The notes below the pieces were generated by a model, which did no database searches, had not been told where the DNA came from, and saw only the letters and a program-made list of their open reading frames with translations. From a virus, in the IMG/VR virus record IMGVR_UViG_3300027779_002770, positions 1-64,000 of that record: a DNA stretch of 64,000 bases; one strand, written 5' to 3'. Below, piece after piece: positions 1,759 through 60,311 of the stretch. The translations under genes and the position numbers were made by a program. The stretch's first letter is position 1, and each line of letters begins with the position of its first letter.

Positions 1759-4140
1759 ATGGCCGAGAGAATAGTCTCACCAGGAGTATTTACTCGTGAA
1801 AAAGACCTCTCATTCTTACCTCAAGGAATCGCTGAGATTGGTGCAGCATTAGTAGGCCCAACTAAAAAAGGACCTGCTTTTACACCAACTGTAGTGAGAA
1901 ATTTCCAAGAGTTTGAAGGAATGTTTGGATCTTTAGACGATAGATATTACATCCCAATGACTGCTAGAGAGTATTTAAGAAGTGCAGGAACTGTAACAAT
2001 AGTTAGAGTTCTTGGAATTGGCGGCTATAGTGCCGGCGGTGTTCAAATTGGTGTACAAAGTGGTGATGCTGGCTCTGATGCTTTAGCAATCCAACTTGTA
2101 CTTGCACCAAGCGCGTTCACAGAAGGTGAATCGACACCTCTCGCTGGAACAATAGCAGCAGGAACATCAGCAGCATGGGACATACGTTCTGGCAGCTATC
2201 AATTTTCCGCTTCTTTTAGTAACTCTAGTAACAAATACTACAAAGATGTCTTTAGTGATAATCCCCTTGTGACAAAAGCACAAGGTAATGATTGTCCATT
2301 CTACATCTATAAACAATTCCCAACTGCAGCGGCAAGCAATGGCACTGCTAACATTGTATCATCATCTAACTTCACATTAAATATGCTGAAAGATTATCAA
2401 CGTGCAGAAACGCCGTTTATAACAAGTCAGAAATCTGATGGAAATGTAGAAAACTTATTTAAGGTAGCACTTAGACATGATGGTGAAAATGAAACAAATA
2501 CCTATTTCAAAGTAGGCCTTTCAAATATTAAGAAGGCTTCTGATGTAGCAGGCTCAGATTATGGAACATTTAGTTTGCAAGTTAGGAAACTGGATCAACA
2601 AACATGGGCTTCAACTGATGATGAGGTTGTTGAACAATTTGATAATCTAAATTTAGATCCGAAATCTACAAACTTTATAGCTCGTAGAATTGGATCAAAA
2701 TGGCAATCAGTTGATTCAGATGGAAAAGTTGTAATGCATGGAGATGCTGAATGGCCGAACTTATCAAAATATGTGTTCATCACAGGTAGTTCTGCAATAA
2801 ATGACGGCAATCTTCCAAAAACACTTGTACCTTACGGACACGCTGCAGCATTATTCCCGCATACTTGTTCAATGACAAATACAGGTAGCGCACATTTCCC
2901 AGCTAACACTTTTGTAACATCACAGGTTAGTTCAACAACTAATCAGTATGATACTAGTATTTTCTTCGGATTTGATTTTTCAACGGTTGATAATAGAAGT
3001 TATTTATCACCATTGGCATCAGACGCAGCTGTTTATCATAACCCATCATTTAGTTTAGATGATATGTTAGGCAACGATACTGCAACAGCAGGTAAGTTTG
3101 GCGGCGCAACAACGTTTGCTTCTGGATCTAATCCAATATCACTCACAGCATCTGCTTTAGGACAAAGAAAATTTGTTGTTCCTATGCAAGGTGGCTTTGA
3201 TGGTATGAACCCTGCTATCAAGAAGAAGGTAGGAAAAGAAATAACTGCAACAAATCAACAAGGTTTTGATTGTTCTGCTGCAACCGCTAGCGGATCTGTA
3301 GCATATGAAAGAGCAATTAATGCCATCAGTAATCAGGATGAGTTTGATATTAATTTACTTGCAACACCTGGTTTGATTTACACGATTCATCCAAACCCAA
3401 TCAATATTGCTATTGATATGGTTAAAGCTAGAGGAGATGCATTCTACATATTTGATTCTTCTGCTTGGGGTGATACTATTGCAACAACTACAAATGCTGT
3501 GGCATCATCTGATACTAACTACGCAGCAACTTATTATCCGTGGGTAAAACTACTTGATGATACAGTCAACTTACCGCTGTGGGTTCCACCTTCAGTTGTT
3601 ATTCCTGGCGTGATAGCTCAAAATGATAGAGTTGCTCACGAATGGTTTGCACCTGCTGGTCTTAACCGTGGTGGTCTAAGGGGAGTTTTAGAAGCCAAGA
3701 CAAGACTAACACATGCTGAAAGAGATATTCTCTATGAAGGACGTGTTAATCCAATTGCTTCATTCCCAGGTCAAGGTGTAGTAGTTTTCGGACAGAAAAC
3801 ATTGCAAGCAAAACCATCAGCTTTGGACAGAATTAATGTTCGTAGGCTGTTAATTAGGCTTAAAAAGTTCATTGCTAGTTCTTCTCGCTATCTATTGTTT
3901 GAAAACAATACGACTGCAACTAGAGCAAGATTTATGAATATTGTGAACCCGTATTTAGATTCAGTACAATCTAATCAAGGGCTCTCGGCTTATAGGGTTG
4001 TAATGGATGACACAAACAATACAGCAGACGTAATTGATCGCAATCAGTTGGTAGGACAGATATTTATCCAGCCAGCACGTGCGGTTGAATTTATCGTTCT
4101 AGACTTTGTTGTTGAGCCATCTGGAGCAACATTCGCTTAA
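1759..4140 (+). CDS. contractile tail sheath protein (gp18-like)
   Basis: 793 aa, the sheath subunit that polymerises around the tail tube and contracts to drive DNA injection. The start (VSPGVFTREKDLSFLPQGIAE) is the typical sheath N-terminus, with the early GPTKKGPAFTPT strand. The conserved C-terminal domain is also clear: a long helix with INVRRLLIRLKKFI, then SRYLLFENN, and VGQIFIQPARAVEFIVLDF near the end. It is longer than T4 gp18 (about 660 aa); the extra mass lies in the variable middle (roughly residues 100-450), which forms surface domains in this family. A GGAG site precedes the ATG, and a strong terminator follows. Confidence 0.95.
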   Translation: MAERIVSPGVFTREKDLSFLPQGIAEIGAALVGPTKKGPAFTPTVVRNFQEFEGMFGSLDDRYYIPMTAREYLRSAGTVTIVRVLGIGGYSAGGVQIGVQSGDAGSDALAIQLVLAPSAFTEGESTPLAGTIAAGTSAAWDIRSGSYQFSASFSNSSNKYYKDVFSDNPLVTKAQGNDCPFYIYKQFPTAAASNGTANIVSSSNFTLNMLKDYQRAETPFITSQKSDGNVENLFKVALRHDGENETNTYFKVGLSNIKKASDVAGSDYGTFSLQVRKLDQQTWASTDDEVVEQFDNLNLDPKSTNFIARRIGSKWQSVDSDGKVVMHGDAEWPNLSKYVFITGSSAINDGNLPKTLVPYGHAAALFPHTCSMTNTGSAHFPANTFVTSQVSSTTNQYDTSIFFGFDFSTVDNRSYLSPLASDAAVYHNPSFSLDDMLGNDTATAGKFGGATTFASGSNPISLTASALGQRKFVVPMQGGFDGMNPAIKKKVGKEITATNQQGFDCSAATASGSVAYERAINAISNQDEFDINLLATPGLIYTIHPNPINIAIDMVKARGDAFYIFDSSAWGDTIATTTNAVASSDTNYAATYYPWVKLLDDTVNLPLWVPPSVVIPGVIAQNDRVAHEWFAPAGLNRGGLRGVLEAKTRLTHAERDILYEGRVNPIASFPGQGVVVFGQKTLQAKPSALDRINVRRLLIRLKKFIASSSRYLLFENNTTATRARFMNIVNPYLDSVQSNQGLSAYRVVMDDTNNTADVIDRNQLVGQIFIQPARAVEFIVLDFVVEPSGATFA

Positions 4141-4266: not shown

Positions 4267-4755
4267 ATGCCACAGCTGATAGATCCGACAGATATAATGT
4301 TTACCCAATTTGAACCAAAGGTTCAAAATCGGTTCATTATGTACATTGAGGGGATCCCTGCTTACACTATCAAAGCTGCAGCCCGCCCCCAAATTCAATT
4401 TGAAGATATTACACTCGACCATATTAATGTAAAACGTTACGTTAAAGGCAAGGGCGAGTGGCAGCCATTAGTTTGCACACTTTATGATCCAGTTGTTCCA
4501 TCAGCAGCACAGGCAGCAATGGAATGGATTCGATTATCACATGAATCTGTAACTGGTCGTGATGGATATTCAGACTTTTATAAAAAGAACGTCACATTTA
4601 ATGTATTAGGTCCAGTAGGCGATATCGTTGAAGAATGGCAGCTAGTTGGCTGTTTTATTCAACAAGCTAACTTCGGGACACTTGACTGGGCAACTAATGA
4701 GCCAGTTAGCATTGAATTGACACTTAGATACGATTACGCTATACTACAGTTCTAG
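4267..4755 (+). CDS. tail tube protein (gp19-like)
   Basis: 162 aa, matching the length of T4-type tail tube subunits (about 163 aa). It forms the hexameric inner tube through which DNA passes. Family features: the N-terminal DIMFTQFEPKVQNRFIMYI strand, ARPQIQFEDI and KGKGEWQPLVCTLYDP in the middle, and LVGCFIQQANFG followed by EPVSIELTLRYDYAIL at the C-terminus. The start has a GGAG site a few bases upstream. It lies directly after the sheath gene, as in T4-like phages. Confidence 0.92.
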   Translation: MPQLIDPTDIMFTQFEPKVQNRFIMYIEGIPAYTIKAAARPQIQFEDITLDHINVKRYVKGKGEWQPLVCTLYDPVVPSAAQAAMEWIRLSHESVTGRDGYSDFYKKNVTFNVLGPVGDIVEEWQLVGCFIQQANFGTLDWATNEPVSIELTLRYDYAILQF

Positions 4756-4859: not shown

Positions 4860-5627
4860 ATGTCTACAAACACAACAAAAAGTAGATTCCCTACTGAGCT
4901 AGTGGATTTACCAAGCAAAGGCCTTTTATATCCTGAAGGGCACCCTCTATCAGATGGAAAAGTTGAAATAAAGTATATGACTGCAAAAGAAGAGGATATT
5001 TTGACATCTATGAATCTAATTGAGAAGGGTATTGTAATTGATGAGTTACTTAAGTCTATTATAATAACAAAATTCAATTATGGTGATGTTCTTATTGGAG
5101 ATAAAAATGCAATCATGCTTTCAGCAAGAATATTAGGTTACGGCAAAAATTATGATGTTGAAGTGAACTGTGGCGAATGTGGCGTAAAAGAAGACACACC
5201 TTTTGATTTAACTAGTTATGGTTACAAAGAAGTAGATGAGTCTGGTTTTAATGTTGATAATAAATTTAAATGGACGCTTCCTAATTCAGAAAGAGAAGTT
5301 GAATTTAAATTATTAACACATGCAGATGAACAAGGAATAACACAAGCATTAGCAAGTGTAAAAAAAGCAGGAATACAAGCGACAGGTGAAATTACAACTA
5401 GACTTCGATACCAACTATTGTCAGTTGACGGAAATACAGACAAAGAATTTATTAATAACTTTATTATGAATGAGTTCTTTGCGCTTGATTCCAGAGCATT
5501 TAGAGATTATGTTTCGACCATAACACCAGATGTAGATTTTACAAGCTATTTTATATGTAGTGCATGTAAGGATTCAGCAGAGATACAGCTGCCAATCACA
5601 GCAAATTTCTTCTGGCCTTCCCGGTAG
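4860..5627 (+). CDS. baseplate hub / tail assembly protein gp26-like
   Basis: 255 aa, resembling the gp26 proteins of marine T4-like phages. The N-terminus has VDLPSKGLLYPEGHPL and a TAKEEDIL motif. Two CxxC pairs (C104/C107 and C233/C236) probably bind one zinc. It sits between tail tube and tape measure genes, where other tailed phages encode the two tail assembly chaperones. The reading frame ends FFWPSR-stop, and just before that a slippery heptamer (5603-5609) can move ribosomes into the -1 frame and add 75 residues. So it may be the short form of a two-product gene. Function in hub or tape-measure chaperoning is inferred from family and position. Confidence 0.8.
   Translation: MSTNTTKSRFPTELVDLPSKGLLYPEGHPLSDGKVEIKYMTAKEEDILTSMNLIEKGIVIDELLKSIIITKFNYGDVLIGDKNAIMLSARILGYGKNYDVEVNCGECGVKEDTPFDLTSYGYKEVDESGFNVDNKFKWTLPNSEREVEFKLLTHADEQGITQALASVKKAGIQATGEITTRLRYQLLSVDGNTDKEFINNFIMNEFFALDSRAFRDYVSTITPDVDFTSYFICSACKDSAEIQLPITANFFWPSR
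5603..5609 (+). promoter_or_regulatory. -1 frameshift slippery heptamer A AAT TTC
   Basis: In the gp26-like frame the codons read gcA AAT TTC, which fits the X XXY YYZ rule for -1 slippage. After slipping, the frame runs on as CTT CTG GCC ... through a conserved-looking gp51-like region to the stop at 5834-5836. That region has no ATG, GTG or TTG until 5717, and a TAA closes its frame upstream near 5567. Only weak downstream pairing is visible, so no clear stimulatory hairpin is claimed. Confidence 0.65.
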
Positions 5628-5836
5628 ATCCCGAATATAAACCGATAGTACACGACGCAATTTTTAGCTTAGTTTACTACAGTGAAGGCGCATTCTCATT
5701 CGGGGATGTATATGATATGCCCATTTACTTACGAAAATTTTATACTGATAAACTAATTGATGCAAGAAAGGCTGAAAATTCTCAGGCTGAAAAAGCATCC
5801 CGCGGAAAGGGCACTAGTATACAAAGACCCGGTTAA
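5609..5836 (+). CDS. gp51-like extension read by -1 frameshift
   Basis: 75 codons in the -1 frame relative to the gp26-like gene, ending at TAA 5834-5836. The peptide includes AFPVDPEYKPIVHDAIFSLV, then YYSEGAFSFGDVYDMPIYLR and KFYTDKLIDARKAE. This resembles the small gp51 baseplate-hub assembly proteins of T4-like phages. It has no normal start codon ahead of the conserved part and no own RBS, so production as a 325-aa gp26-gp51 fusion by frameshifting is the simplest explanation. Alternatives are initiation at CTG 5612 or a sequencing indel near 5610. The next gene starts 55 bases later. Confidence 0.65.
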   Translation, partial: LLAFPVDPEYKPIVHDAIFSLVYYSEGAFSFGDVYDMPIYLRKFYTDKLIDARKAENSQAEKASRGKGTSIQRPG

Positions 5837-5890: not shown

Positions 5891-6160
5891 GTGAACAAGA
5901 ATAATTTAAATGAAGCAGCACTGGCAGCAATCATCTCAGGATTGGTCGGCGCATATATTGTATCAAAGTTACAAAACAATAATACAAAAGCAAATAATAT
6001 AAGAAAAGCAGTCAGTAAGTTAGATTCAAATATCGAAGTTGATCTAAGCGCAATTGACAAAAAAGTTGAAAGAGAAGCTGAAATGATCAAGAAAAAAGTA
6101 GCTAAAATGTCAGCTGAAGATAGAGCGCGTGTTGAAAAAATGGCTTCATACTTTAATTAA
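5891..6160 (+). CDS. small membrane-anchored helical protein
   Basis: 89 aa, GTG start preceded by AGGAG. Residues about 8-27 (EAALAAIISGLVGAYIVSKL) form one likely membrane helix; the rest is a charged helix rich in Lys and Glu. It lies between the gp26/gp51 pair and the tape measure gene. No family is recognised. A membrane or tail-tip chaperone role is possible but unsupported. Confidence 0.65.
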   Translation: MNKNNLNEAALAAIISGLVGAYIVSKLQNNNTKANNIRKAVSKLDSNIEVDLSAIDKKVEREAEMIKKKVAKMSAEDRARVEKMASYFN

Positions 6161-6176: not shown

Positions 6177-8528
6177 ATGCCTGGTGTTAACAAAGAACAA
6201 TTACAAAACTATGAAGCATATGTCAAGCTTACAGCTGAAGAAGCAGCTCTGAGAGAAAAAATCAGGAAGACTGGTGGTTCGAATGATGATGCAAGTAGGA
6301 TTAAACAAGTAAAGGAAGAGTTAGTCCCATTAGTTAAAGGCTTGAAGGCCGTTGATACTACTGTTGAGAAGCTTGTAAAGGATATTGCAAACATAAACGG
6401 CAAGGTAGGAGGACTAACCGGCGGTTTTAAGAAACTATCAGAGCAAAAAACAGACAAATATTTAGATAAAGTTCACACACAAAGTAATAAGGCCGCTGAA
6501 GCAATTGGCACAATGGCTACTAAGCTTGGAAACTTACACAAGCAAGGCAAGGGTAGCGGAGATCTTGCAAGAGGACTATCAAGTATTCTTGCAATAGAGT
6601 CTGACATCCGCAATTTATCGACTGATAAGGCACAATTAGCAGAGGCAAATTTAGCAAAATTAAAACAAGAAGTACAGGCAACGTATCAATTACTAGAGTC
6701 AACAGGGCATTTAACTGACGAAGAAAAAGCAAGATTAAATATACAGTTGCAACAGGTTACTAATTTAGAGATGCAAAAGGCACGAACTGAAAAACTAACA
6801 GATCTCCAATCAAAAGGCGCTGATGCGCAGAAGAGCATAGCAGATTTTATGGCAAACTTTTCTAGTAAGTCACTAGGCGCACTTGCAATATGGGCTGGCT
6901 TAACTAAACTAATGCAATTTTTTACAAAGGGTGCGTTGCAGACACAAGGTGCTTTAGGCACATCCTTAGAAGACTCTTACAAATTTGAAGCTAGCTGGCA
7001 GAAATCATTAAGTCCGTTAGAGCAGGCATCTTTTTTATTGACAGGTGTCCGTGATGATGTTAGGAGTGCAGCTCATGCTGCAGCATTAGCAGGAGACAAT
7101 CTTGACTTAATGAATAATAAAGCAATGGCTGTTAGTGACGCAGCACTTGCAATGCAATCCGGATTAGGCGCAACAGAAGTTGCTGAGCTAGCACAGATGA
7201 TGTCAGAGGTAACTGGCTTATCTAGGGAAGCTGCATCAGCACAACTAGTTGGAACACAAGCATTAGCAACAGCAAATAAAGTTGCACCAGCAAAAGTCCT
7301 TGCAGACATGGCAGCCAATTCAAATCTACTTGCAGCCTCTACTGACGGCTCAGCTGATAGTATGGCAAGGCTAGCAATATTCGCACGAAAGGCAGGAATT
7401 GAAATATCAGGTATGTCTAGCATGGCTGACAGTTTATTAGATATAGAAACATCAATAACTGCTGAGATGAATGCAAGTGTTATGCTCAATAGACAACTTA
7501 ATTTGGATGCAGCAAGACAAGCAGCATCACGAAATGATTTTGAGGGAATGGCGAGAGAGGTTCAACAGCAGCTAGCAGGAATCGATTTTGAAGAATTAGA
7601 CTTTTTTCAAAGAAAACAATTAGCACAGGCTGTAGGAATATCAGATGTTGGTCAGCTTGCAAAAATAATGGCAAGATCAGATACATCAGAGTTGACGCAA
7701 GATATAGCAACAGATGCTCAAAAACAATTAAAGTCATCCGCTCAGTTAGCTAAGCAAGGCGCTACAACAAATGACCTCTTAGGCACAATTAAAAGAATTA
7801 TTATTGCAATTGCTGCAATGCAAGCAGTTGGAGGAATAGCAGGTCTTGCTAAGATGTTTAGAGGCGGTATACCTAAGATGGGAATGAAAAACCCTATGGG
7901 AAAAATGTATAAAGGTGGACAAAAAATGCCAGGAGGTGGAAGGGCCCCAGCAGGCGGTGCGCGAGGAACTTCTATGCTTGGCGCGGCTATGAAAAATCCA
8001 ATGCTGAAAACTGCTGGCAAGATCGGCGGTAGTTCACTTGCTGCTGTAGGCATAGGCATGGATGCATATAGTAATTATCAGCAGTCAGGAGATGTTGGAC
8101 AGACTATAGCAGATACTGCAATGCAGAATAAATATGCATTATTAGGTGCAAGCATAGGTACTGGATTAACAGCATGGTCAGGGCCGGGTGCACTATTTGG
8201 TGCAGGAGCAGGATTTTTAGGAGGCACAGTATTAGATATGATCGCACCACATATTGGGCTTGCAAGCGGCGGAACTGTAGGAAGCTCTGGCACTTATATG
8301 GTTGGTGAAAAAGGACCAGAATTAGTATCACTTGGCAGAGGCTCACAGGTAGTACCAAATCATTATATGGGAGGTCTTGCATCCGGTGCGCTAGGAAGCA
8401 AAATATCATTCATGTCCGGAACAGAAGAAAAATTAGATAAAGTAATAAAAGCATTAGAAGGCATTGCAGGACATACAGCAGGAACTGAAGGCGCTGTTAA
8501 AAATATTCAAATAGCGGGTGGCAAATAA
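6177..8528 (+). CDS. tail tape measure protein
   Basis: 783 aa. Residues about 1-215 are long charged helices; a hydrophobic stretch follows near 235-250 (SLGALAIWAGLTKLMQFF), then Ala-rich helices to about 515, another hydrophobic segment at about 535-560 and a Gly-rich region to about 690. The C-terminal segment has the motif GTYMVGEKGPELVSLGRGSQ with VVPNHY, which is typical of tape measure proteins in many tailed phages. It fixes tail length and enters the cell on infection. At roughly 1.5 angstrom per residue the tail would be near 115 nm (inference). It follows the gp26/gp51-like genes and overlaps the next start by one base (TAATG). Confidence 0.85.
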   Translation: MPGVNKEQLQNYEAYVKLTAEEAALREKIRKTGGSNDDASRIKQVKEELVPLVKGLKAVDTTVEKLVKDIANINGKVGGLTGGFKKLSEQKTDKYLDKVHTQSNKAAEAIGTMATKLGNLHKQGKGSGDLARGLSSILAIESDIRNLSTDKAQLAEANLAKLKQEVQATYQLLESTGHLTDEEKARLNIQLQQVTNLEMQKARTEKLTDLQSKGADAQKSIADFMANFSSKSLGALAIWAGLTKLMQFFTKGALQTQGALGTSLEDSYKFEASWQKSLSPLEQASFLLTGVRDDVRSAAHAAALAGDNLDLMNNKAMAVSDAALAMQSGLGATEVAELAQMMSEVTGLSREAASAQLVGTQALATANKVAPAKVLADMAANSNLLAASTDGSADSMARLAIFARKAGIEISGMSSMADSLLDIETSITAEMNASVMLNRQLNLDAARQAASRNDFEGMAREVQQQLAGIDFEELDFFQRKQLAQAVGISDVGQLAKIMARSDTSELTQDIATDAQKQLKSSAQLAKQGATTNDLLGTIKRIIIAIAAMQAVGGIAGLAKMFRGGIPKMGMKNPMGKMYKGGQKMPGGGRAPAGGARGTSMLGAAMKNPMLKTAGKIGGSSLAAVGIGMDAYSNYQQSGDVGQTIADTAMQNKYALLGASIGTGLTAWSGPGALFGAGAGFLGGTVLDMIAPHIGLASGGTVGSSGTYMVGEKGPELVSLGRGSQVVPNHYMGGLASGALGSKISFMSGTEEKLDKVIKALEGIAGHTAGTEGAVKNIQIAGGK

Positions 8529-27951: not shown

Positions 27952-28453
27952 TTTTGTAGATAATATCTATATTTTAAAAGCACTTACAAGATATAATAAT
28001 AAATTTAAAATAATTAATGAATCAGTAGCAGAACATTCTTATTTTGTTGCTGTATTAACACTTAAAATGCATGATGATTATAATTTTGATCTAGAAGAGG
28101 CGCTCAAAATGGCACTAATTCATGACATTCCGGAATTACATTTATCAGATGTCACACATGATGTAAAGCGTAATTTTCCAAAGCTTGCACAAGAAGTAAC
28201 TAATGCTGAATATGTCATTATGAAGCAAAAATATCCGCAATGGTTCACAGAATTCAAAAAATTTGAAGATCAGGAGTCAGTTGAGGCATTAGTTGTAAAG
28301 ATGGCAGATAATCTTAGTTGTGTGCAATATGCAACTGCAGAAATGTTGCTTGGCAATAAGGGTTATATGAAAGAAGTCGCTGAAAATGCCGCTAAAAGAG
28401 TTATGCAATGTGAAAGAAAATTAAAAAAATGGAGAAAAATAAATGCCAATTAA
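27920..28453 (+). CDS. HD-domain 5'-deoxynucleotidase (YfbR-like)
   Basis: 177 aa HD phosphohydrolase. Metal ligands: H38 in VAEHSYFVA, H68-D69 in ALIHDIPELHLSDVTHD, and D128 in VVKMADNL. YfbR-type enzymes dephosphorylate dNMPs; phages use them to adjust pools or destroy unwanted nucleotides. The start is inside the preceding gene and the end overlaps ThyX by 11 bases, so the pool-shaping genes are translated as a chain. Confidence 0.82.
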   Translation: MKKNTSVSLSDFVDNIYILKALTRYNNKFKIINESVAEHSYFVAVLTLKMHDDYNFDLEEALKMALIHDIPELHLSDVTHDVKRNFPKLAQEVTNAEYVIMKQKYPQWFTEFKKFEDQESVEALVVKMADNLSCVQYATAEMLLGNKGYMKEVAENAAKRVMQCERKLKKWRKINAN

Positions 28454-29408
28454 CAATGATTTACCAGTAGTTGAACTTCCAACTGGTCTGGGATTTAACG
28501 AACCAATAAAAACAGACTTCCATGATCATCTGGACTCTGTAAAAATAAAGCTAGTAAGCAGCCCTTCAATAGAAGAATTAAGAAACTATATACCTGACTT
28601 TTGTACTGCTACATGGGCAGAACAGCCTTTCAATAAAGCCGGACTGTCAAATTATGAAAAAGATAAAATGATTTGGATGTTATTTGATGGAAAGCTATTG
28701 CCAACAGCATTCGAAACAATAAACTGTACGTTTACCATAGAGGGTATTGACACTCAATTTGTAACACACTTAATCAGACATCGTACATTCAGCTTTTCAG
28801 CGCAATGTACAGGTGACAGATCACAAAGAAATGATAATGCTGTCATACCCCATGCAATCATTAACACACCTGAGATGGCTGAACGCTATAAACAATTAGT
28901 CAATGACACAAAGCAGCTTTACGCTGACATGGTTGACACAAAGCAAATTTCTGTTATGGATGCCAGGCATATTTTGCCAAAATGCCTAAGTACATTTTAC
29001 TGGGCAAGAGGTAACATAAGAGATGTAATGGCTTTTATCAAGACCCGCATCGATAAACAAATCCAACCAACAGAAGATAATTTAGTTGCATACTACATGT
29101 GGTTAGAACTGGTAAGGCAATATCCAATGCTTATTGACTGTATCGACATCCACACGCCTGCAAGATATTATATTTCTACAGCAAGAACAGGTACAGGCAC
29201 AAATCTTTACTGGCCAGATGAAGACTCTGATCTGTTTGACTATAATGAAGATGATTTTTTATATCAGTCTATACGTGAAGATCTTAACGGAACTAAAGAC
29301 TCTGGTAGAAATACATTCATTGAAAAGCTAATAGAAGTAGATAAAGAATTAGAAGAAATAAGACAAGTCGCATATGAAAGATATGATTTTTTAAAAGAAG
29401 GAAAATAG
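28443..29408 (+). CDS. thyX: flavin-dependent thymidylate synthase ThyX
   Basis: 321 aa. It makes dTMP from dUMP using FAD, NADPH and methylene-folate. The ThyX signature is present at residues 112-130: R112-H-R-T-F-S117 then CTGDRSQR, close to RHRxxSxxxxSxRY. A second conserved part is ARHILPKCLSTFYWARGNIR with DVMAFIKTR, the dUMP-binding and catalytic region. It is longer than bacterial ThyX (about 220-250 aa), with an extended C-terminus (about 250-321, acidic). A ThyA-like half-domain is encoded separately at 33.5 kb. Confidence 0.92.
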   Translation: MPINNDLPVVELPTGLGFNEPIKTDFHDHLDSVKIKLVSSPSIEELRNYIPDFCTATWAEQPFNKAGLSNYEKDKMIWMLFDGKLLPTAFETINCTFTIEGIDTQFVTHLIRHRTFSFSAQCTGDRSQRNDNAVIPHAIINTPEMAERYKQLVNDTKQLYADMVDTKQISVMDARHILPKCLSTFYWARGNIRDVMAFIKTRIDKQIQPTEDNLVAYYMWLELVRQYPMLIDCIDIHTPARYYISTARTGTGTNLYWPDEDSDLFDYNEDDFLYQSIREDLNGTKDSGRNTFIEKLIEVDKELEEIRQVAYERYDFLKEGK

Positions 29409-37225: not shown

Positions 37226-38704
37226 ATGCTTAAGCTAGGTGACGTTCGTAATGGATACGAAGTTCTCCCGCATAACAAAAGAAAAACAGTCCTGCTATTA
37301 AGTGACGATTTAAGAATGACGTCAGGTGTCGGGAATATGTCAAGAGAATTTGTTATGGGAACTTTGCATCAAATTAATTGGATTCAAATTGGTGGTGCAA
37401 TAAACCATCCAGACGCTGATAAGGCGATAGACATGAATGAAGATGTGCAAAAAAGAACTGGAATTGAAGACGCATATTTAAAAATACATCCAGTAAATGG
37501 TTATGGAAACCAAGAGATTGTTCGACAATGTCTAAATTTTTATAAACCTGATGCAATCATGATCTATACAGATCCAAGATTCTGGGGATGGTTGTTCCAA
37601 ATGGAAAATGAAATACGTCAAAATCTGCCTATTTTTTATTACAATATATGGGATGATCTTCCGTACCCGATGTGGAACCAAAAATATTATGATTCTGTAG
37701 ATGCATTATTTAATATATCACGACAAAGTGTTAATATTGTAAAGCAAGTAAGATCATCATACGAAGATTGGCAAGCAACATACATTCCGCATGGTATCAA
37801 TGAAGATGATTTTTTTCCATTACCTAAGAAATATGAGAAACAAAAAGAATACGAAGAATTTAAAAAAGATGCATTGCAACACAGTAAAAAAGATTTTGTA
37901 CTTTTCTATAATGCTAGAAATATTAGAAGGAAATTACCAGCAGATATTGTTTATGCGTATAGAACATTTTGTGATTCTATTCCAAAAGAAGATGCTGCTA
38001 GGTGTTTATTATTAATGCATTGTGCACCAGCAGATGAAAATGGAACTGATCTTCCTGAAGTTGTAGCAAATTTATGCCCTGATTATTCTGTTGGCTTCTC
38101 TTCCGGAAAGCTTGAAAGAGAACAAATGAATTGGTTATATAATTTATCAGATTGTTCGATACTAATAAGTTCTAATGAAGGATTTGGCTTAATGGGTGCA
38201 GAATCATTAATTACTGGCACGCCATTAATTGTAAATGTTTCAGGCGGAATGCAAGATTATTGTGGATTTAAAAAAGAAAACGGAGAGTATCTAACAGTTG
38301 ATGATTACACTCTAGAGTGGGGATCAAATCATGATGGACGATATAAGGATCACGGTGAGTGGGTATTTCCTGTATATCCAATGTCGCGATCAATTCAGGG
38401 CTCAATACCAACTCCATATATTTCTGATGATAGACCTGATTGGCAAGATGTTGCAATACAAATTAAAAAAGCATGGTCTATGAGAGGTAAGAAATTACAA
38501 GAAGCAGGTATGAAAGGAAGAGAATTTATTCTTGATCCGGAAATAGGAATGACATCATCAGAAATGTGTAGAAGGTTTGTACATGATATGCATCAAGTAT
38601 GGGAAAACTGGAAACCAAGAGCAAGAATGACAATAGATAATGCTACATTATGGAATCCAAGAAAGATAAAATTTAACGGTCTAACATTAAACAAGGAGAT
38701 ATAA
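37226..38704 (+). CDS. GT-B glycosyltransferase (group 1/GT4-like)
   Basis: 492 aa. The first domain begins KTVLLLSDDLRMTSGVGNMS, where the acceptor-side glycine loop is visible; the C-terminal domain has VLFYNARNIRRKLP and the donor-binding ISSNEGFGLMGAESLITGTP (about 311-330), the E-x7-E motif of GT4 enzymes. It likely adds a sugar from a nucleotide donor. It opens the polysaccharide cluster, starting directly after the RHH-like gene and overlapping the next glycosyltransferase (TAATG). Confidence 0.8.
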   Translation: MLKLGDVRNGYEVLPHNKRKTVLLLSDDLRMTSGVGNMSREFVMGTLHQINWIQIGGAINHPDADKAIDMNEDVQKRTGIEDAYLKIHPVNGYGNQEIVRQCLNFYKPDAIMIYTDPRFWGWLFQMENEIRQNLPIFYYNIWDDLPYPMWNQKYYDSVDALFNISRQSVNIVKQVRSSYEDWQATYIPHGINEDDFFPLPKKYEKQKEYEEFKKDALQHSKKDFVLFYNARNIRRKLPADIVYAYRTFCDSIPKEDAARCLLLMHCAPADENGTDLPEVVANLCPDYSVGFSSGKLEREQMNWLYNLSDCSILISSNEGFGLMGAESLITGTPLIVNVSGGMQDYCGFKKENGEYLTVDDYTLEWGSNHDGRYKDHGEWVFPVYPMSRSIQGSIPTPYISDDRPDWQDVAIQIKKAWSMRGKKLQEAGMKGREFILDPEIGMTSSEMCRRFVHDMHQVWENWKPRARMTIDNATLWNPRKIKFNGLTLNKEI

Positions 38705-39996
38705 TGGGAAAACCGAGTGTTTTAGTTACTGCACCTGTTGCAACAAGATCAGGATACGGGGCAAGATCAAGAGACGTTGTGCATGCATTATTAAAATTAG
38801 ATAAGTATGACGTCAGTGTATTTCCTGTACCGTGGGGAACAACAGCACAAAATGCTCTAGTCATTGATAACCCTAGAGATAAAGCAATATTTGATTGTAT
38901 AGTAACAAGTCAAGATGCGCTACCAAAGAATCCTGATGTTCATATACATATCGTTGTTCCAAATGAATTTATGCCAGTTGGAAAATATAATATTGGAATA
39001 ACAGCCGGCCTCGAGGCAACAGCAATTCCGCAATCTTGGATCGAAGGTATTAATCGAATGGACTTGACACTGGTAAGCTCAGTATTTAGCAAGGATGTTT
39101 GTCTGCTAACAGAGTACACTGACAAGGCTGTAAACAAAGTTATGAAAGTTGAAAAGCCAGTTGAGGTTTTATTTGAAGGAACAGATACTGATATATTTCA
39201 TAAGAAAGCTTCAGGGTCAAGCTTCTCAAAGCCTATTGTTGATGTAATGAAACAAATTAAAGAGAACTGGTGCTTTTTATTTGTTGGCCATTGGCTTCAA
39301 GGACCAGAAGGACATGATAGAAAAGATGTTGCAAATCTTATTAGATCTTTTATGACAACTTTTAGAAATAAAAAAGATACTGCGCTAATACTAAAGACAT
39401 CTGGCGCAACAAATTGTGTATTAGATAGAGAAGAGTTATTACGAAAAATAAGAAATATAAAAATATCACTTGATCTCCCTGAGAGCGCGCTACCAAGTGT
39501 TTATCTATTACATGCAGATTTATATGATGATGAAGTGAATGATTTGTACAACCATCCAAAGGTAAAAGCTCATATTACATTTACACACGGAGAAGGATTT
39601 GGAAGGCCATTGCTAGAAGCAAGTCTGTCAGCTAAGCCAATTCTTGCTACAGGGTGGTCCGGACACACAGATTTTCTTAATAAAACCAATACAGTTTTAT
39701 TGCCAGGCAGCATGATAGATGTTCATCCTGCTTCACTTCCAGAGAATATTTTTGTCAAAGGACAACAATGGTTTTGTGTTAATTATCCTGAGGCAGCAAG
39801 ACAAATGCTAAGTGTTCGAAAAAATCATAAGGTATTTAAAGCAAAGGCTGCAAAACAAGCAATGTGGAACAAATCAAAATTTAGTTTTGATAGTATGACG
39901 AAGAGGTTAGGCAGTATATTAAATGATAATCTTCCAAAATTTACAGAAACAGTTATACCAAAGATTAACTTACCAAAATTAGAAAAAACATCATGA
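38704..39996 (+). CDS. GT-B glycosyltransferase (GT4-like)
   Basis: 430 aa. N-terminal VLVTAPVATRSGYGARSRDV has the glycine-rich acceptor loop. The donor domain shows WCFLFVGHWLQGPEGHDRK and ITFTHGEGFGRPLLEASLSA (the E-x7-E type), then KPILATGWSGHTDFL. Together with the preceding gene it resembles the pair of GT4 enzymes that build O-antigen-like chains. The end overlaps the next ATG (ATGATG). Confidence 0.8.
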   Translation: MGKPSVLVTAPVATRSGYGARSRDVVHALLKLDKYDVSVFPVPWGTTAQNALVIDNPRDKAIFDCIVTSQDALPKNPDVHIHIVVPNEFMPVGKYNIGITAGLEATAIPQSWIEGINRMDLTLVSSVFSKDVCLLTEYTDKAVNKVMKVEKPVEVLFEGTDTDIFHKKASGSSFSKPIVDVMKQIKENWCFLFVGHWLQGPEGHDRKDVANLIRSFMTTFRNKKDTALILKTSGATNCVLDREELLRKIRNIKISLDLPESALPSVYLLHADLYDDEVNDLYNHPKVKAHITFTHGEGFGRPLLEASLSAKPILATGWSGHTDFLNKTNTVLLPGSMIDVHPASLPENIFVKGQQWFCVNYPEAARQMLSVRKNHKVFKAKAAKQAMWNKSKFSFDSMTKRLGSILNDNLPKFTETVIPKINLPKLEKTS

Positions 39997-40205
39997 TGCA
40001 ACTAGGCTCATCAATTGTGAAAGCTATAAGAAAAAAGCTTGAAGGCGAAATTGAAACTCATAAAGTTAACATTCAAATTATGCTTGAAAACACGGTTGGC
40101 ATTGCTAACCATCCTAATGTTATAGAGACAATTGAAGATAAGCTTAGCATTATGGCTGCTTGTGAAGATAAAATATTAGTTTTAGAAAAATACTTTGAGG
40201 TATGA
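39993..40205 (+). CDS. small helical protein
   Basis: 70 aa, charged amphipathic helices (SIVKAIRKKLEGEIETHKVN ... NVIETIEDKLSIMAACEDKI). Overlaps the end of the glycosyltransferase gene by four bases and the following small gene by four. No family recognised. Confidence 0.55.
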   Translation: MMQLGSSIVKAIRKKLEGEIETHKVNIQIMLENTVGIANHPNVIETIEDKLSIMAACEDKILVLEKYFEV

Positions 40206-40324
40206 ATATGATGTTAGCTATAATACCAAGCTTTATGCAAAATTGGGAAATGATCTACTTTTGTATGTTTTGCTTATTAATGATGGATTTTACAGATTGG
40301 ATAGATAGAAAATGGAAAAAGTAA
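40202..40324 (+). CDS. 40-residue membrane peptide
   Basis: ATG 40202 to TAA 40322-40324. The peptide starts MNMMLAIIPSFMQNWEM and has a hydrophobic stretch IYFCMFCLLMMDF before a basic end (WIDRKWKK), giving one likely membrane helix. It is linked by short overlaps to the genes on both sides (4 and 13 bases), which argues for translation. Function unknown. Confidence 0.5.
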   Translation: MNMMLAIIPSFMQNWEMIYFCMFCLLMMDFTDWIDRKWKK

Positions 40325-40758
40325 TACAATGTTTTGTGTGTGAAGATCTAGACCACTGCTTCGAAGAAGTACAAGAAGCATATAGCAGTTTTATGTGTTT
40401 TAAATGTGGCTTCATGAGTGATACAAGATTCAATAATGATCATGATAGAGAGTCTGAACAAAATATGGCGTTGTTAATGAATAAGATTAAAGTCTTTGAT
40501 GAAGTAAGAAGAATCTGGTGGTATCCCTCTGTTGTTAATATGGGTAAGTTGGGTATGATTTTTCCTGAAGGCTCTAGCAAATATGACTGGCAATGGAAAT
40601 TTGCTAAGGTCGTACCTGTTTCACAAGGTGATACTGCGGCAGAAGGTTATACTGAAAAATTAGATATTGAAAATGCAGATACCTATAACAAAGCTGATTT
40701 TATATCAGCTATCAAAGATATGGGAATAACAAAGGATCTAAGAAATGCGAAGAATTAG
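40312..40758 (+). CDS. zinc-ribbon-like hypothetical protein
   Basis: 148 aa. The N-terminus has C7-x2-C10, C16 and C29-x2-C32 (QCFVCEDLDHCFE ... FMCFKCGF), probably a zinc ribbon. The remainder contains Trp-rich strands (RRIWWYPSVVNMG, DWQWKFAKVV). Overlaps both neighbours. Such proteins occur near the glycan or DNA-metabolism genes of marine myoviruses, but no role is known to me. Confidence 0.6.
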   Translation: MEKVIQCFVCEDLDHCFEEVQEAYSSFMCFKCGFMSDTRFNNDHDRESEQNMALLMNKIKVFDEVRRIWWYPSVVNMGKLGMIFPEGSSKYDWQWKFAKVVPVSQGDTAAEGYTEKLDIENADTYNKADFISAIKDMGITKDLRNAKN

Positions 40759-41239
40759 TTGGGCATCTTCACAGCCAGGCCAAGTTGTAAAATTTAGATA
40801 CAAAGGCAAACGTCCAGGCGCAAAAGCTCGTCTTCGTGAGTGTTTTATTTTAAACCCACAACACATGTATAAACGAAAAGATGGAAAAAGAGTAAGATTA
40901 GTTCACGCAGTGCAATTTAGTGCAGTACCTCCCAAAAAAGGAACAAGAAATCTACAAACAAATCAAATTAGCATGATCTTAGAAGGACTATCAGATGAAT
41001 TATTACTTCTAGAAAGCGGTGAAGTGGAAGCTCTTGTAAAAAACCCACCAAGAGTGACATACCAAAAAGTTCAAAGATTGCTCAAGCAGATATCATCACC
41101 AATATACAGAACTTTTTCTTGGCAACTTCTTCAGAGAAGCGCTGTATTTGTTGTTGACGATCTTGAGTTGACACCTGCCCTTCAAAGCAAGCTAATTTCA
41201 TTCAGCCCTGATCCAAATGTTGATGAGTCTGACATATGA
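40745..41239 (+). CDS. basic hypothetical protein
   Basis: 164 aa, basic N-terminal half with a beta-rich core (VVKFRYKGKRPGAKARLREC ... LVHAVQFSAVPP) and a helical C-terminal half (TYQKVQRLLKQISSPIYRTF). No family recognised. It overlaps the preceding gene by 14 bases and the following glycosyltransferase by an ATGA. Nucleic-acid binding would fit the charge but is a guess. Confidence 0.55.
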   Translation: MRRISWASSQPGQVVKFRYKGKRPGAKARLRECFILNPQHMYKRKDGKRVRLVHAVQFSAVPPKKGTRNLQTNQISMILEGLSDELLLLESGEVEALVKNPPRVTYQKVQRLLKQISSPIYRTFSWQLLQRSAVFVVDDLELTPALQSKLISFSPDPNVDESDI

Positions 41240-41871
41240 TTTCAATAAGTTACGCGGTTACAACACATAATGAACATAAAGAGATAGAAGAGCTTATACC
41301 TTTTATACTAAATAATAAAGATAAAGAAGATGAGCTAGTTATCCTTGATGATTATTCCAGCTATGAGACATGGCGAGTATTTGATGAGTACATTCATATT
41401 CCAGATGCAAATATTAAATTTGTAGAACGTGGATTTCATGGAGACTTTTCTACACATAAAAATTTTATGAATGATCAATGCAGTGGAGATTGGATTGTTA
41501 ATATTGATGCCGATGAAATGCCAAATAAATTTTTAATGTCAAATATTAAGGGTTTACTAGAGGCGAATCCAGAAGTTGAATTATTTTGGGTGCCAAGAGT
41601 GAATACTGTCAAGGGTATAACACCACAACATGCAAGACAATGGCATTATAAGATAAATGAACAGGGATGGGTTAATTGGCCAGACCCACAACAAAGAATT
41701 TATAAAAATAAAGATGATATTAAGTGGACAAGAAGAGTTCATGAACGATTAATTGGTGCAAAAAAAGATGCATTCTTGCCGTATGAAGAACAATGGTGTT
41801 TTTATCATCATAAGACAATAGAAAAACAAGAAGCACAAAATAAGTTATATGGAGACATACAAGCTAATTGA
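41236..41871 (+). CDS. family 2 glycosyltransferase
   Basis: 211 aa GT-A fold enzyme. ISYAVTTHNEHKEIEELIP is the typical GT2 N-terminus, ELVILDDYSSYETW holds the first Asp pair, and WIVNIDADEMPNKF the D-x-D metal site. The later WFVH-like segment is KWTRRVHERLIG. It resembles WaaE/KdtX-type core glucosyltransferases in length and order. Overlaps the next gene by 23 bases. Confidence 0.82.
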   Translation: MISISYAVTTHNEHKEIEELIPFILNNKDKEDELVILDDYSSYETWRVFDEYIHIPDANIKFVERGFHGDFSTHKNFMNDQCSGDWIVNIDADEMPNKFLMSNIKGLLEANPEVELFWVPRVNTVKGITPQHARQWHYKINEQGWVNWPDPQQRIYKNKDDIKWTRRVHERLIGAKKDAFLPYEEQWCFYHHKTIEKQEAQNKLYGDIQAN

Positions 41872-42643
41872 GTTTATAGTTCCAGAACCTTTTCGTTTTG
41901 GAAATAGAACTAATACAACAGCAGATGATTTAAGATCTGTTCGAGGTGATGTGAAAATATCATCTAGATTAAATGAGCGTTTAAAGGGCAAGTCAGTTAT
42001 TATAATAGGTCCTTCTCCATACTTACAAGGGTTAGGCAGAGGAAAAGAAATTGATAAATTTGATGTGGTTATTAGGCTAAATAAAGGCTGGAATGTTAGC
42101 AAAGAACTACAAGCTGATTATGGAAAAAAGACGACAATGAGGTATCATTGTATGATGGAACATGAAAGTAATGGTGGAAAATACGACATAAGTGGTATGA
42201 AAGACTATGGCGTAGAATGGTTGGCATCCCAATTTCCATATAATCTAGACTATTTCCATGAAGATAATAAAAAATTTAGAGATCTAAATGAAAATCAAAT
42301 TAATTTTCATGTTCCAGCTGATTTATTATATCACTTAAACTTACATGAAATGATGGAGACAAGAGCAAATGTTGCAACGTCAGCAGTCTTTGATTTAATC
42401 AATTATGACATAGATCATTTACACCTATCAGGTATCTCATTTTATAGAGATGGATGGGTTGGTAATTATAAAGACGGTGCTGAAAATACAGATGATGAGG
42501 GCAATTATAAAATGGACATGAAACATATGCAGAAAGAAGGTCACGCACAGGAAGCACAAATGCATTTACTTAAACTTTTATTATCAACGGACGACAAGTT
42601 TTCTGTTGATAATGAGATACAAAATATACTGGAGTCAAAATGA
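41849..42643 (+). CDS. sialyltransferase-like protein (GT29 type)
   Basis: 264 aa. The segment KSVIIIGPSPYLQGLGRGKE followed by IDKFDVVIRLNKG (about 49-81) matches sialyl motif L, which binds the CMP-sugar donor. A later ATSAVFDLINYDIDHLHLSG with a following ISFY looks like motif S. GT29 enzymes transfer sialic acid or Kdo-like sugars. A CMP-sugar synthetase (47.8 kb) and a Kdo-8-phosphate synthase (57.2 kb) in the same window could supply donor. Acceptor unknown. Confidence 0.65.
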   Translation: METYKLIEFIVPEPFRFGNRTNTTADDLRSVRGDVKISSRLNERLKGKSVIIIGPSPYLQGLGRGKEIDKFDVVIRLNKGWNVSKELQADYGKKTTMRYHCMMEHESNGGKYDISGMKDYGVEWLASQFPYNLDYFHEDNKKFRDLNENQINFHVPADLLYHLNLHEMMETRANVATSAVFDLINYDIDHLHLSGISFYRDGWVGNYKDGAENTDDEGNYKMDMKHMQKEGHAQEAQMHLLKLLLSTDDKFSVDNEIQNILESK

Positions 42644-43614
42644 ATTCTTTAAACATACATGATCAGAAAATATTAATTACAGGTGGCGCAGGTTATATTG
42701 GAACGGAGCTCACGAAGTTACTATTAGAAAGCGGATACTATGTCACAGTGTACGATAGGTTAATGTACGATGGTGCAGTTTTAATTCCATTTTTCAGCGA
42801 TCCAAATTTCAACTTTATAAAAGGAGACATCCTAGACAAAGACAAATTATCAGATGCAATGACAGATAAAGATGTTATTATTCATTTAGCAGCTGTTGTG
42901 GGCTATTTTGCATGTGACAAGAATAAGAACATGTCAACAGATATTAATGTACAAGGTACACAAAATGTACTTGACGCAATTGAACCATCTCAACTGCTAT
43001 TATTCGGATCAACAGGATCAAATTACGGCAAAGTTGATGGTATATGTCTCGAGACAACGCCGTTAAACCCATCAACACTTTATGGAAGAACAAAAACAGA
43101 AGCAGAAGATATTGTAATGAATCAACATAATAATTCAATTGCGTATAGATTTGCAACAGCATTCGGTATTTCACCAAGACTTCGTATGGATTTATTAATA
43201 AATGATCTTGTGTATAAAGCTGTAACTGAGGGAGCATTAGTAATCTATCAATCAAGCGCAATGAGAACATTCATTCATGTTAGAGATATGGCGATGTCAT
43301 TTTTATTTGCAATTGTAAATCATGATAAAATGTCAGGTGAAGTATACAATTGCGGATCTAATGACTTAAACTATTCAAAACGTGATATTTGTGATATGAT
43401 TAAGGATAAGACTGGGTGCTATATACACTATAATGATTTTGACTATGACAAAGATAACAGAGATTATGAGGTATCGTATGACAAGTTATATGATTTGGGC
43501 TATGATATCAGTGTAAGTATTGATGAAGGGATTGATGAATTATTAAATGTTTACAATGTACTAAATTTTGTTGATAAGAGATATTTGAATACTGGATTTC
43601 CAGAAATAAATTAA
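42640..43614 (+). CDS. NAD-dependent sugar epimerase/dehydratase
   Basis: 324 aa extended SDR. Rossmann motif ILITGGAGYIGTELTKLL (about 11-28), DVIIHLAAVVGY, the catalytic LLFGSTGSNYG and STLYGRTKTEAE with the YxxxK pair, then AYRFATAFGISPRLR and MRTFIHVRDMA. Similar to WbpK/dTDP-sugar reductase groups. It lies two genes before the GT29 donor-sugar genes and ten bases before the PLP dehydrase, so it probably converts the same nucleotide sugar. Confidence 0.85.
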   Translation: MNSLNIHDQKILITGGAGYIGTELTKLLLESGYYVTVYDRLMYDGAVLIPFFSDPNFNFIKGDILDKDKLSDAMTDKDVIIHLAAVVGYFACDKNKNMSTDINVQGTQNVLDAIEPSQLLLFGSTGSNYGKVDGICLETTPLNPSTLYGRTKTEAEDIVMNQHNNSIAYRFATAFGISPRLRMDLLINDLVYKAVTEGALVIYQSSAMRTFIHVRDMAMSFLFAIVNHDKMSGEVYNCGSNDLNYSKRDICDMIKDKTGCYIHYNDFDYDKDNRDYEVSYDKLYDLGYDISVSIDEGIDELLNVYNVLNFVDKRYLNTGFPEIN

Positions 43615-43623
43615 GGAGTTATA

Positions 43624-44868
43624 ATGAAAACAATAGAGACATATTGGCCGCTAATGAAAGACTGCATAACACAGGAAGATAAAGATGAAATGCTACAGTT
43701 TATTAGCACATCAAATAGATTTACAAATGGACCTCATGTAAAAGAATTTGAGAAACAATGGTCTGCGTGGCTGGGTGTTAAAAAATCATTATTTGTTTCC
43801 TCAGGTAGCACAGCAAATTTTTTATTGTTAGCTTCGCTTAAAGAATTATATGGATTAAAAGATGGAGATAAAGTTGTTGTTCCTGCTATAACATGGGTAA
43901 CTAATATTTCACCAGTGATTCAACTAGGACTTAAACCAATTTTTTGTGATGTAGATAAAAGAACATTTTCATTTGATAAAAAAGCACTTTATAAAATTGC
44001 AAAAGAACATGATGATATAAAAGCATGTTTTGTATCACATTTATTCGGCGTCCCTGCAGAAATAGAAGATTATAAATCCATATTTAAAGATGCAGGATAT
44101 GACTATGAATATGTTAAATGGATTGAAGATGTATGTGAATCACATGGAGCAGTCTGTGACGGCCAGATGGGCGTAGCAAATGCTGGTACACTGAGTGAGG
44201 GATCAACATTTAGTTTTTATTTTGGGCATCACATGACAACAGTTGAAGGCGGAATGGTATCAACTGACAATGAAGAGTTGTATCAAGTAATGAAAGCAAA
44301 AAGATCACATGGAATGGCGCGTGAATTAGATGAAGAATATTATGAAGCAGCTAAGAAGAAGAATCCTAAAATTCATCCAATGTTCTTATTTGTTACAGAT
44401 GGCTATAATTTTAGAAATACAGAAATATATGCTGTTCTTGGCAAAAGTCAATTAAAAAGATTGAACTCGCAAAATTTCCAACGTAAGCAAAATTATAACC
44501 GATTTTTAGAAATAATCTCTGAGTATAAGTCTTTTATACATAATGATCTTATTAAAGAAGGCGTTTCATCATTCTGTTTACAATTTATTTGTAAGACAGA
44601 AGCAATCAGAAATAAGCTTGAAAAATCTTTACAAGAAGCTGGTGTTGAAACAAGGCCACTTTGCAGTGGAAATTTATTACGTCAACCATTTTTAACAGAA
44701 TATGGTTATAAGCCAGAAGACTTCCCAAATGCAGAATATCTAGATGCGCATGGCTTTTTTATAGGAAATAATCATTTAATAACAGATGATGATTTTAATA
44801 AACTTCATGCTAATATTGATGCTGTATGCAAACAGATGTCAGAAAAAGTTACAAAATTAAACAAATAA
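43624..44868 (+). CDS. PLP-dependent sugar 3-dehydrase (ColD/RfbH-like, DegT family)
   Basis: 414 aa DegT/DnrJ/EryC1/StrS-family enzyme. SSGSTANFLLLASLKE binds the PLP phosphate, PAITWVTNISPVI and IEDVCESHGA (D169 contacts the pyridine ring) are typical. In the position of the PLP-binding lysine there is H202 (SFYFGHHMTTVEGGMV), as in GDP-4-keto-6-deoxymannose 3-dehydrase (ColD) and CDP-sugar 3-dehydrase (RfbH/E1). So it probably removes the 3-hydroxyl to make a 3,6-dideoxy sugar rather than transferring an amine. RfbH-type iron-sulfur cysteines are not obvious, which favours the ColD type. AAGGAG lies before the ATG. Confidence 0.8.
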   Translation: MKTIETYWPLMKDCITQEDKDEMLQFISTSNRFTNGPHVKEFEKQWSAWLGVKKSLFVSSGSTANFLLLASLKELYGLKDGDKVVVPAITWVTNISPVIQLGLKPIFCDVDKRTFSFDKKALYKIAKEHDDIKACFVSHLFGVPAEIEDYKSIFKDAGYDYEYVKWIEDVCESHGAVCDGQMGVANAGTLSEGSTFSFYFGHHMTTVEGGMVSTDNEELYQVMKAKRSHGMARELDEEYYEAAKKKNPKIHPMFLFVTDGYNFRNTEIYAVLGKSQLKRLNSQNFQRKQNYNRFLEIISEYKSFIHNDLIKEGVSSFCLQFICKTEAIRNKLEKSLQEAGVETRPLCSGNLLRQPFLTEYGYKPEDFPNAEYLDAHGFFIGNNHLITDDDFNKLHANIDAVCKQMSEKVTKLNK

Positions 44869-44873
44869 AAGCC

Positions 44874-44902
44874 TTTACATTTAAACAAAAAAGGGTTAGA
44901 TT
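44874..44902 (+). promoter_or_regulatory. promoter of TTTACA-N17-TAGATTCT family (copy B)
   Basis: TTTACA (44874-44879), 17-base spacer, TAGATT (44897-44902), then CTAATACAATAATC as in copy A. An imperfect inverted repeat AAGCC/GGGTT surrounds the boxes. It serves the small genes from 44930. Confidence 0.7.
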
Positions 44903-44929
44903 CTAATACAATAATCAAAGGAATACAGA

Positions 44930-45112: not shown

Positions 45113-45152
45113 TAATTACCATGAAAATAAAATACAAAAAGGAAACAACAAA

Positions 45153-60310: not shown

Positions 60311-60311
60311 A

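What the first reader, a model, noticed from the sequence alone, without database searches (positions are those of the whole stretch)
5597..5836. -1 programmed frameshift joins gp26-like and gp51-like tail genes
A AAT TTC at 5603-5609 is a canonical slippery heptamer at the end of the gp26-like frame. The -1 frame then encodes a gp51-like 75-residue domain that has no ATG/GTG/TTG before its conserved part. The pair lies between tail tube and tape measure, exactly where lambda-like phages use frameshifting (G/GT) to make tail assembly chaperones. It suggests that T4-type gp26/gp51 are the equivalent chaperone pair.
Basis: partly seen in the sequence, partly recalled or inferred. Interest (0 to 1): 0.78.

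Follow-up and report, generated by a model that had tools for sequence, protein, structure and literature searches.

The report
Phage tail chaperone made by frameshifting
In this marine T4-like phage the tail assembly helper protein appears to be made in a short and a long form by ribosomes slipping back one base near the end of the gene, and most of its relatives make the same long form by slipping forward one base, so the slip direction has switched once during evolution while the two-form output was kept.

Summary
A_AAT_TTC (5603-5609) lies in the gp26 frame (4860-5627). The -1 frame continues to 5836 and encodes a gp51-like domain with no ATG/GTG/TTG before its conserved core. All 24 window-clade loci scored keep NNA_AAT_TTC and the -1 frame; dN/dS in that frame is about 0.13/1.66.

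Going beyond the finding, 222 other loci carry the same domain in the +1 frame, almost all behind TTT_TTT_T (or CTT_T), never in frame. The synonymous signature fits the slip direction. In the +1 group no codon before TTT_TTT ends in T (0 of 89, 40 expected), which avoids the -1 heptamer T_TTT_TTT. Cyanophages, Aeh1 and others have NNT_TTT_TTY and the domain in -1. The window clade sits inside the +1 group on the gp26 tree. A 7-nt linker insertion and recoding to AAT_TTC_TTC accompany one +1 to -1 switch.

T4 gp51 is a gp26-like N part plus this C domain on a separate gene. That gp26/gp51 are the tail assembly chaperones of T4-like phages was already published (Vladimirov 2022, read only through citing papers), so the chaperone idea is not new. 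The family-wide +1 sites and the switch appear to be. No frameshift product has been measured.

The parts
4860..5627 (+). gp26-like ORF (255 aa), frame 0: short form, tail assembly chaperone N (TAC-N)
   Evidence: PF12322 T4_baseplate E 5.8e-12 and phrog_150 E 2.1e-17; hhalign to cyanophage gp26 98.2%; AlphaFold2 pLDDT 89
5603..5609 (+). A_AAT_TTC, -1 slippery heptamer in the gp26 frame
   Evidence: invariant in 24 of 24 window-clade loci
5606..5836 (+). -1 frame: gp51-like C domain, reached by frameshift; fused to gp26 gives the long form (TAC-NC)
   Evidence: dN 0.13, dS 1.66 in this frame; three predicted helices, pLDDT 80
5607..5615 (+). TTC TTC TGG, the place of the +1 slip site TTT TTT TGG of relatives, destroyed here by two synonymous differences
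   Evidence: pattern log10P -8.3 given codon usage, relatedness ignored
5618..5624 (+). 7-nt linker TTCCCGG present in the window clade, absent in +1 relatives; its length turns a +1 relation into -1
   Evidence: alignment
5625..5627 (+). TAG stop of the gp26 frame (end of short form)
5615..5689 (+). possible weak downstream helix (5615-5627 with 5677-5689), 5 nt after the heptamer; not established
   Evidence: conserved pairs but little covariation, folding z-scores between 0 and -1.9
4267..4755 (+). tail tube protein (context)
   Evidence: phrog_4542 E 4e-25, gp19 family
6177..8528 (+). tape measure protein (context)
   Evidence: blastp E 3e-9 to the annotated tape measure of Flavobacterium phage immuto

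Best explanation
gp26 and the gp51-like domain are the short and the extended form of one tail assembly chaperone (TAC-N and TAC-NC, like lambda gpG and gpGT). Most ribosomes stop at TAG 5625-5627 and make gp26 alone. A minority slip back one base at A_AAT_TTC (5603-5609; tRNA-Asn from AAU to AAA, tRNA-Phe from UUC to UUU) and read on to 5836, adding about 75 residues. The ancestor of this phage clade used +1 slippage at UUU_UUU_U (peptidyl tRNA-Phe slipping forward on YUU_U), as its relatives still do. A 7-nt insertion in the linker and loss of the +1 site, with gain of A_AAU_UUC, switched the direction once while the two products were kept. Shown: sequence, frame, conservation, selection, tree position. 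Inferred: that slippage happens on the ribosome, its efficiency, and the chaperone role (from homology, gene order and published work on T4-like phages).
For: The heptamer and -1 frame are kept in 24/24 window-clade loci down to about 57% gp26 identity. The gp51 frame is open through the slip site in 157/157 non-redundant loci, never in frame 0, and 82/157 have no ATG/GTG/TTG before the core. dN 0.13 against dS 1.66 in the -1 frame beyond the gp26 stop. Among 109 non-redundant +1 loci, 105 have YTT followed by T as the slip codon pair's end; the preceding codon ends in T in 0/89 (40 expected; ratio elsewhere about 0.7) and the second Phe is TTC in 0/104 (33 expected; elsewhere TTC is preferred before T). 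CTT_T variants break the T run, against transcriptional slippage. Cyanophages, Aeh1, phiM19, Melnitz and OLIVR5 have NNT_TTT_TTY and the domain in -1. Tree: window clade support 99, nested in the +1 group, 2 state changes in all. Order tube - gp26 - domain - tape measure as in immuto, SP-15, LIS04. T4 gp51 = gp26-like N + this C domain.
Against: No measurement of the fusion protein. No convincing stimulatory RNA structure and no Rfam match. In-frame heptamers are common by chance in this genome. Some distant relatives (Cygsa01 with TAATG, PhiSH19, Vibrio D506, LR756511) have the domain in -1 without a clean heptamer or with a possible own start. The fold match to the solved HK97 tail assembly chaperone 2ob9 has the highest probability in its list (0.23) but is not significant. 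Direct hhalign of the window C domain to the T4 gp51 C-terminus is weak (14%). The order of events in the switch is not resolved.
Confidence: 0.88

Rival explanations
1. The gp51-like domain is a separate gene translated from its own (non-canonical or downstream) start by re-initiation after the gp26 stop, as annotated in cyanophages.
For: Cyanophage gp51 is annotated with an ATG 2-11 nt after the gp26 stop and Cygsa01 has TAATG; LR756511 has an ATG at the stop.
Against: The window has no ATG/GTG/TTG before the core and no SD; 82/157 loci have none, 75 of them with a stop in the gp51 frame within 30 nt upstream of the slip site. The frame is fixed and never 0; the slip codons carry synonymous constraint that a separate gene would not need. 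Melnitz and OLIVR5 lack an early ATG although the frame stays open through T_TTT_TTY.
Confidence: 0.06
2. Transcriptional slippage on the T run, not ribosomal slippage, makes the fused frame (in the +1 relatives; not applicable to AAATTTC).
For: +1 relatives have runs of seven T; runs of eight are avoided.
Against: The window clade has no run longer than three at the site (four in L095); TTT_CTT_T, TTC_TTT_T and TTC_TTT_C variants in the +1 group break the run; seven T is short for polymerase slippage (general knowledge).
Confidence: 0.04
3. Sequencing or assembly indel: gp26 and gp51 are really one continuous gene, or the domain is a pseudogene.
For: Metagenomic contig.
Against: Independent contigs are identical; 24 clade loci and cultured phages (immuto, Mel-JY01, RM378, SP-15, LIS04, GXN1) all have the domain out of frame; strong purifying selection.
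Confidence: 0.01
4. Frameshifting is real, but the pair is a baseplate hub assembly factor rather than a tape measure/tail tube chaperone.
For: T4 gp26 and gp51 are listed as hub assembly chaperones (PMC3004832).
Against: Position between tube and tape measure, N/NC architecture as in lambda G/GT, published assignment as tail assembly chaperones; the two roles may be one, since the T4 length protein gp29 is itself a hub component.
Confidence: 0.12

Closest known systems
Lambda gpG/gpGT tail assembly chaperone frameshift (Xu et al. 2004; reviewed in PMC5009743)
   Same: Short form plus low-level frameshifted extension, encoded between the tail tube and tape measure genes; C extension a small domain without its own start
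   Different: N domain is the T4 gp26 family, contractile tail; slip site A_AAU_UUC; relatives use +1
T4 gp26/gp51 as TAC-N/TAC-NC of T4-like phages (Vladimirov, Gautam & Davidson 2022, pmid 34826709; known here only through PMC10885494 and PMC12846349)
   Same: Homologous N domain and C domain; same two-form logic
   Different: In T4 the long form is a separate gene on the opposite strand, made by duplication of the N part; here one gene plus frameshift
Cyanophage gp26/gp51 (S-PM2, P-SSM2, S-SM2)
   Same: C domain adjacent, open in -1 through T_TTT_TTY at the gp26 end
   Different: Different heptamer; a distant branch of the gp26 tree; gp51 annotated as a separate gene
Known +1 sites YUU_U and UUU_C: prfB CUU_U, influenza PA-X UCC_UUU_CGU (PMC5009743, PMC3498833)
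   Same: +1 relatives have UUU_U or CUU_U; Streptococcus phage GXN1 has UUU_CGU as in PA-X
   Different: No stop codon in the A site; no upstream Shine-Dalgarno stimulator was looked for systematically
Homologous genes that differ in shift direction (Rab-GDI displacement factor in Pezizomycotina; Listeria phage PSA vs A118 capsid; PMC5009743)
   Same: Direction differs between relatives while the product is kept
   Different: Here the switch is placed on a tree, with the linker indel and the synonymous changes visible

Membership tests
Programmed -1 ribosomal frameshift site | X_XXY_YYZ heptamer in the zero frame inside the overlap | tested here: met
   A_AAT_TTC 5603-5609
Programmed -1 ribosomal frameshift site | Heptamer and frame conserved in relatives, downstream frame under selection | tested here: met
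   24/24 clade loci; dN/dS 0.13/1.66
Programmed -1 ribosomal frameshift site | Downstream stimulatory structure or upstream SD-like sequence | tested here: inconclusive
   A possible helix 5 nt downstream, no significant folding or covariation
Programmed -1 ribosomal frameshift site | Fusion product detected | not testable with these tools
   needs reporter or mass spectrometry
Tail assembly chaperone (TAC-N/TAC-NC) | Located between tail tube and tape measure genes | tested here: met
Tail assembly chaperone (TAC-N/TAC-NC) | Two forms, N and N plus C, from one gene with recoding or two genes sharing the N domain | tested here: met
   sequence level only:
Tail assembly chaperone (TAC-N/TAC-NC) | Fold of a solved tail chaperone (HK97, 2ob9) | tested here: inconclusive
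   2ob9 has the highest probability of the list, 0.23, TMt 0.46, E 2.5
Tail assembly chaperone (TAC-N/TAC-NC) | Binds tape measure and tube, absent from virion | not testable with these tools
   needs biochemistry
T4 gp26 family (PF12322) | Profile match over the family's curated cut-off | tested here: met
   46.2 bits, cut-off 24.5
T4 gp51 | Homology to the gp51 C domain | tested here: met
   indirect: window C - cyanophage C 88.9%, cyanophage C - T4 gp51 C 97.3%; direct window - T4 comparison weak (14%)

The most novel reading that the evidence does not exclude
Within one homologous tail chaperone gene the direction of programmed frameshifting switched from +1 (YUU_U) to -1 (A_AAU_UUC), with a compensating 7-nt linker insertion, and synonymous positions around the poly-U site encode the direction across the T4-like superfamily: a U before UUU_UUY in the poly-U -1 lineages, never a U before UUU_UUU_U in +1 lineages. 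T4's two-gene arrangement is a further solution to the same need for a short and a long form.
Probability: 0.6. Interest if true: 0.72.

Novelty: new variant of a known kind. Interest (0 to 1): 0.62.

Why it matters
It gives a natural experiment on how a recoding signal changes direction without loss of the product, with a simple sequence rule that can be tested in a reporter. It also puts T4 tail assembly, long named as the exception to the conserved G-T frameshift (PMC5009743), on one line with lambda: short and extended chaperone by -1, by +1, or by two genes. Practically, the second product is missing from current annotations of several phages examined (immuto, GXN1, PhiSH19, Aeh1) and probably from many environmental genomes.

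Tried and rejected
(1) The heptamer as evidence on its own: rejected, 141 in-frame heptamers in the window. (2) A second candidate found by the same scan, TTTTTTA near the end of 28443-29408, is an ordinary overlapping gene with a GTG start at 29408. (3) A stimulatory RNA: no significant fold, Rfam empty. (4) Pfam/PHROGs for the C domain: no believable match. (5) An alignment of all C domains is too diverged for the search for related loci. (6) hhalign against single T4 sequences was too weak; family profiles resolved it. One shuffled control gave an outlier (133), probably output parsing; the rerun has maximum 18.0 against 55.5. (7) Solved structures by sequence: no believable match; Foldseek of the 76-residue C domain: no significant match. 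(8) -2 instead of +1 in relatives: considered unlikely because TTT_CTT_T sites allow re-pairing at +1 but not at -2.

Full report
Observation. The gp26-like ORF 4860-5627 ends GCA AAT TTC TTC TGG CCT TCC CGG TAG, so AAATTTC at 5603-5609 is an X_XXY_YYZ heptamer in the zero frame. The -1 frame runs to 5836 and reads FLLAFPVDPEYKPIVHDAIFSLVYYSEGAFSFGDVYDMPIYLRKFYTDKL..., with its first ATG (5717) inside the conserved part. Most of the other genes tested here have a clear Shine-Dalgarno sequence; no early position in the gp51 frame does. Since 141 in-frame heptamers occur in 18,039 codons of the window, the heptamer alone would not convince.

Relatives. 477 viral contigs encode a gp26 relative. 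Over the loci fetched plus phage records, a profile of the C domain finds it directly behind gp26 in all but three truncated loci: +1 frame 222, -1 frame 25, frame 0 never. 24 of the 25 form the window clade and keep NNA_AAT_TTC (GCA, ACA or GTA before); the 25th is LR756511, where the domain has a possible ATG. Some contigs recur among these loci; 159 remain at below 90% identity. The gp51 frame is open through the slip site in 157 of 157 non-redundant loci with a recognisable site; 82 have no ATG/GTG/TTG before the core, and in 75 of these a stop in the gp51 frame lies within 30 nt upstream of the slip site. The +1 set includes cultured phages: Flavobacterium phage immuto, Microcystis phage Mel-JY01, Rhodothermus phage RM378, Bacillus phage SP-15, Listeria phage LIS04, Streptococcus phage GXN1.

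Slip sites. In 105 of 109 non-redundant +1 loci the site ends in YTT followed by T: TTT TTT TGG 80, TTT TTT TAC 18, TTT CTT TGG 4, TTT TTT TAT 2, TTC TTT TAC 1. This is YUU_U, the class of prfB CUU_U; GXN1 has UUU_CGU, the influenza PA-X site (PMC5009743, PMC3498833). The codon before TTT TTT ends in T in 0 of 89 testable cases against 40 expected from local codon usage; elsewhere in the same loci the ratio of observed to expected is about 0.7, so the general context bias does not explain it. The second Phe codon is TTC in 0 of 104 against 33 expected, although TTC is preferred before T elsewhere (498 against 318). P values assume independent loci and are therefore only indicative. In cyanophages, Aeh1, avDM12, phiM19, Melnitz and OLIVR5 the domain is in -1 and the gp26 end is NNT TTT TTY, i.e. 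T_TTT_TTY. So the base before the poly-T predicts the direction. In the window clade both Phe codons are TTC (the second is TTT in L095), which removes the +1 site (log10P -8.3 from codon usage, relatedness ignored).

Switch. On a gp26 tree built without the slip codons the window clade is one clade (99) inside the +1 group, with SP-15, LIS04, GXN1, LR756508 and three environmental lineages outside it; three states need only two changes (RM378 is a long branch and its place is unsure; support of the forks that place the clade inside is 82-95). Alignment of the junction shows 7 nt (TTCCCGG, 5618-5624) in the window clade that +1 relatives lack; 7 nt turns a +1 relation into -1. L095 still has TTC TTT TGG, a possible remnant of the old site. 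The order of insertion and site change is inference.

Selection and structure. Beyond the gp26 stop, substitutions in the window clade fall on third positions of the -1 frame (422, 246, 882 by codon position), mean dN 0.13, dS 1.66. A helix 5615-5627 with 5677-5689 would start 5 nt behind the heptamer and is mostly kept, but covariation is slight and folding energies are ordinary. AlphaFold2 gives gp26 with pLDDT 89 and the C domain as three helices with pLDDT 80. Against solved structures nothing is significant; the HK97 tail assembly chaperone 2ob9 has the highest probability (0.23). Against viral models the best named matches are SP-15 and T4-like baseplate hub proteins.

Relation to T4. 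T4 genes 26 and 51 are on opposite strands. Profile comparison shows the N part of T4 gp51 to be homologous to T4 gp26 (99.4%) and its C-terminal 58 residues to the cyanophage -1 domain (97.3%), which in turn matches the window domain (88.9%). T4 gp51 is thus N plus C in one gene. I found no report of +1 frameshifting in this family or of the switch in the searchable papers; absence from an open-access library is weak evidence of novelty.

Verdict. Programmed -1 frameshifting of a gp26-type tail assembly chaperone, in a clade that switched direction from +1, is well supported by sequence evidence and untested at the bench.

Noticed in passing
L184 (Vibrio phage D506), L185 (Salmonella phage PhiSH19, Ackermannviridae), L180 (Pseudomonas phage Cygsa01), junction after gp26: The C domain is in the -1 frame but the site is ATT_TTC or CTT_TTC rather than a clean heptamer; Cygsa01 has TAATG. 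How the domain is expressed there is open.
   Followed up: partly
L090 (LR756511, 595 kb phage), 3640-3930: gp26 runs about 20 codons past FFFP and a weak C domain starts at an ATG overlapping the stop; may be a further solution.
   Followed up: partly
L083 5717-5955, L088 3727-4000, L185 2001-2160, L186 1896-2076: The C domain is unannotated or only partly annotated in the public records of immuto, GXN1, PhiSH19 and Aeh1.
   Followed up: yes
window 54332-63785: The right end holds genes unusual for a T4-like phage: a TonB-dependent receptor plug protein with CarboxypepD_reg-like domain, a DAHP synthase-family enzyme, and three ORFs with a type IV pilin N-methylation motif. Possibly auxiliary genes or host sequence joined to the phage.
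   Followed up: partly
window 37226-54251: A long run of ORFs whose sequences look like sugar-nucleotide, glycosyltransferase and aminotransferase genes (by eye).
   Followed up: no
window 5891-6160: A small ORF (GTG start, good SD) between the C domain and the tape measure; a small ORF is also annotated before the tape measure in immuto, Mel-JY01 and SP-15.
   Followed up: no
window 29387-29408: TTTTTTA heptamer near the end of the gene 28443-29408 (ThyX-like by eye); the following ORF has its own GTG start overlapping the stop, so no frameshift is needed.
   Followed up: yes
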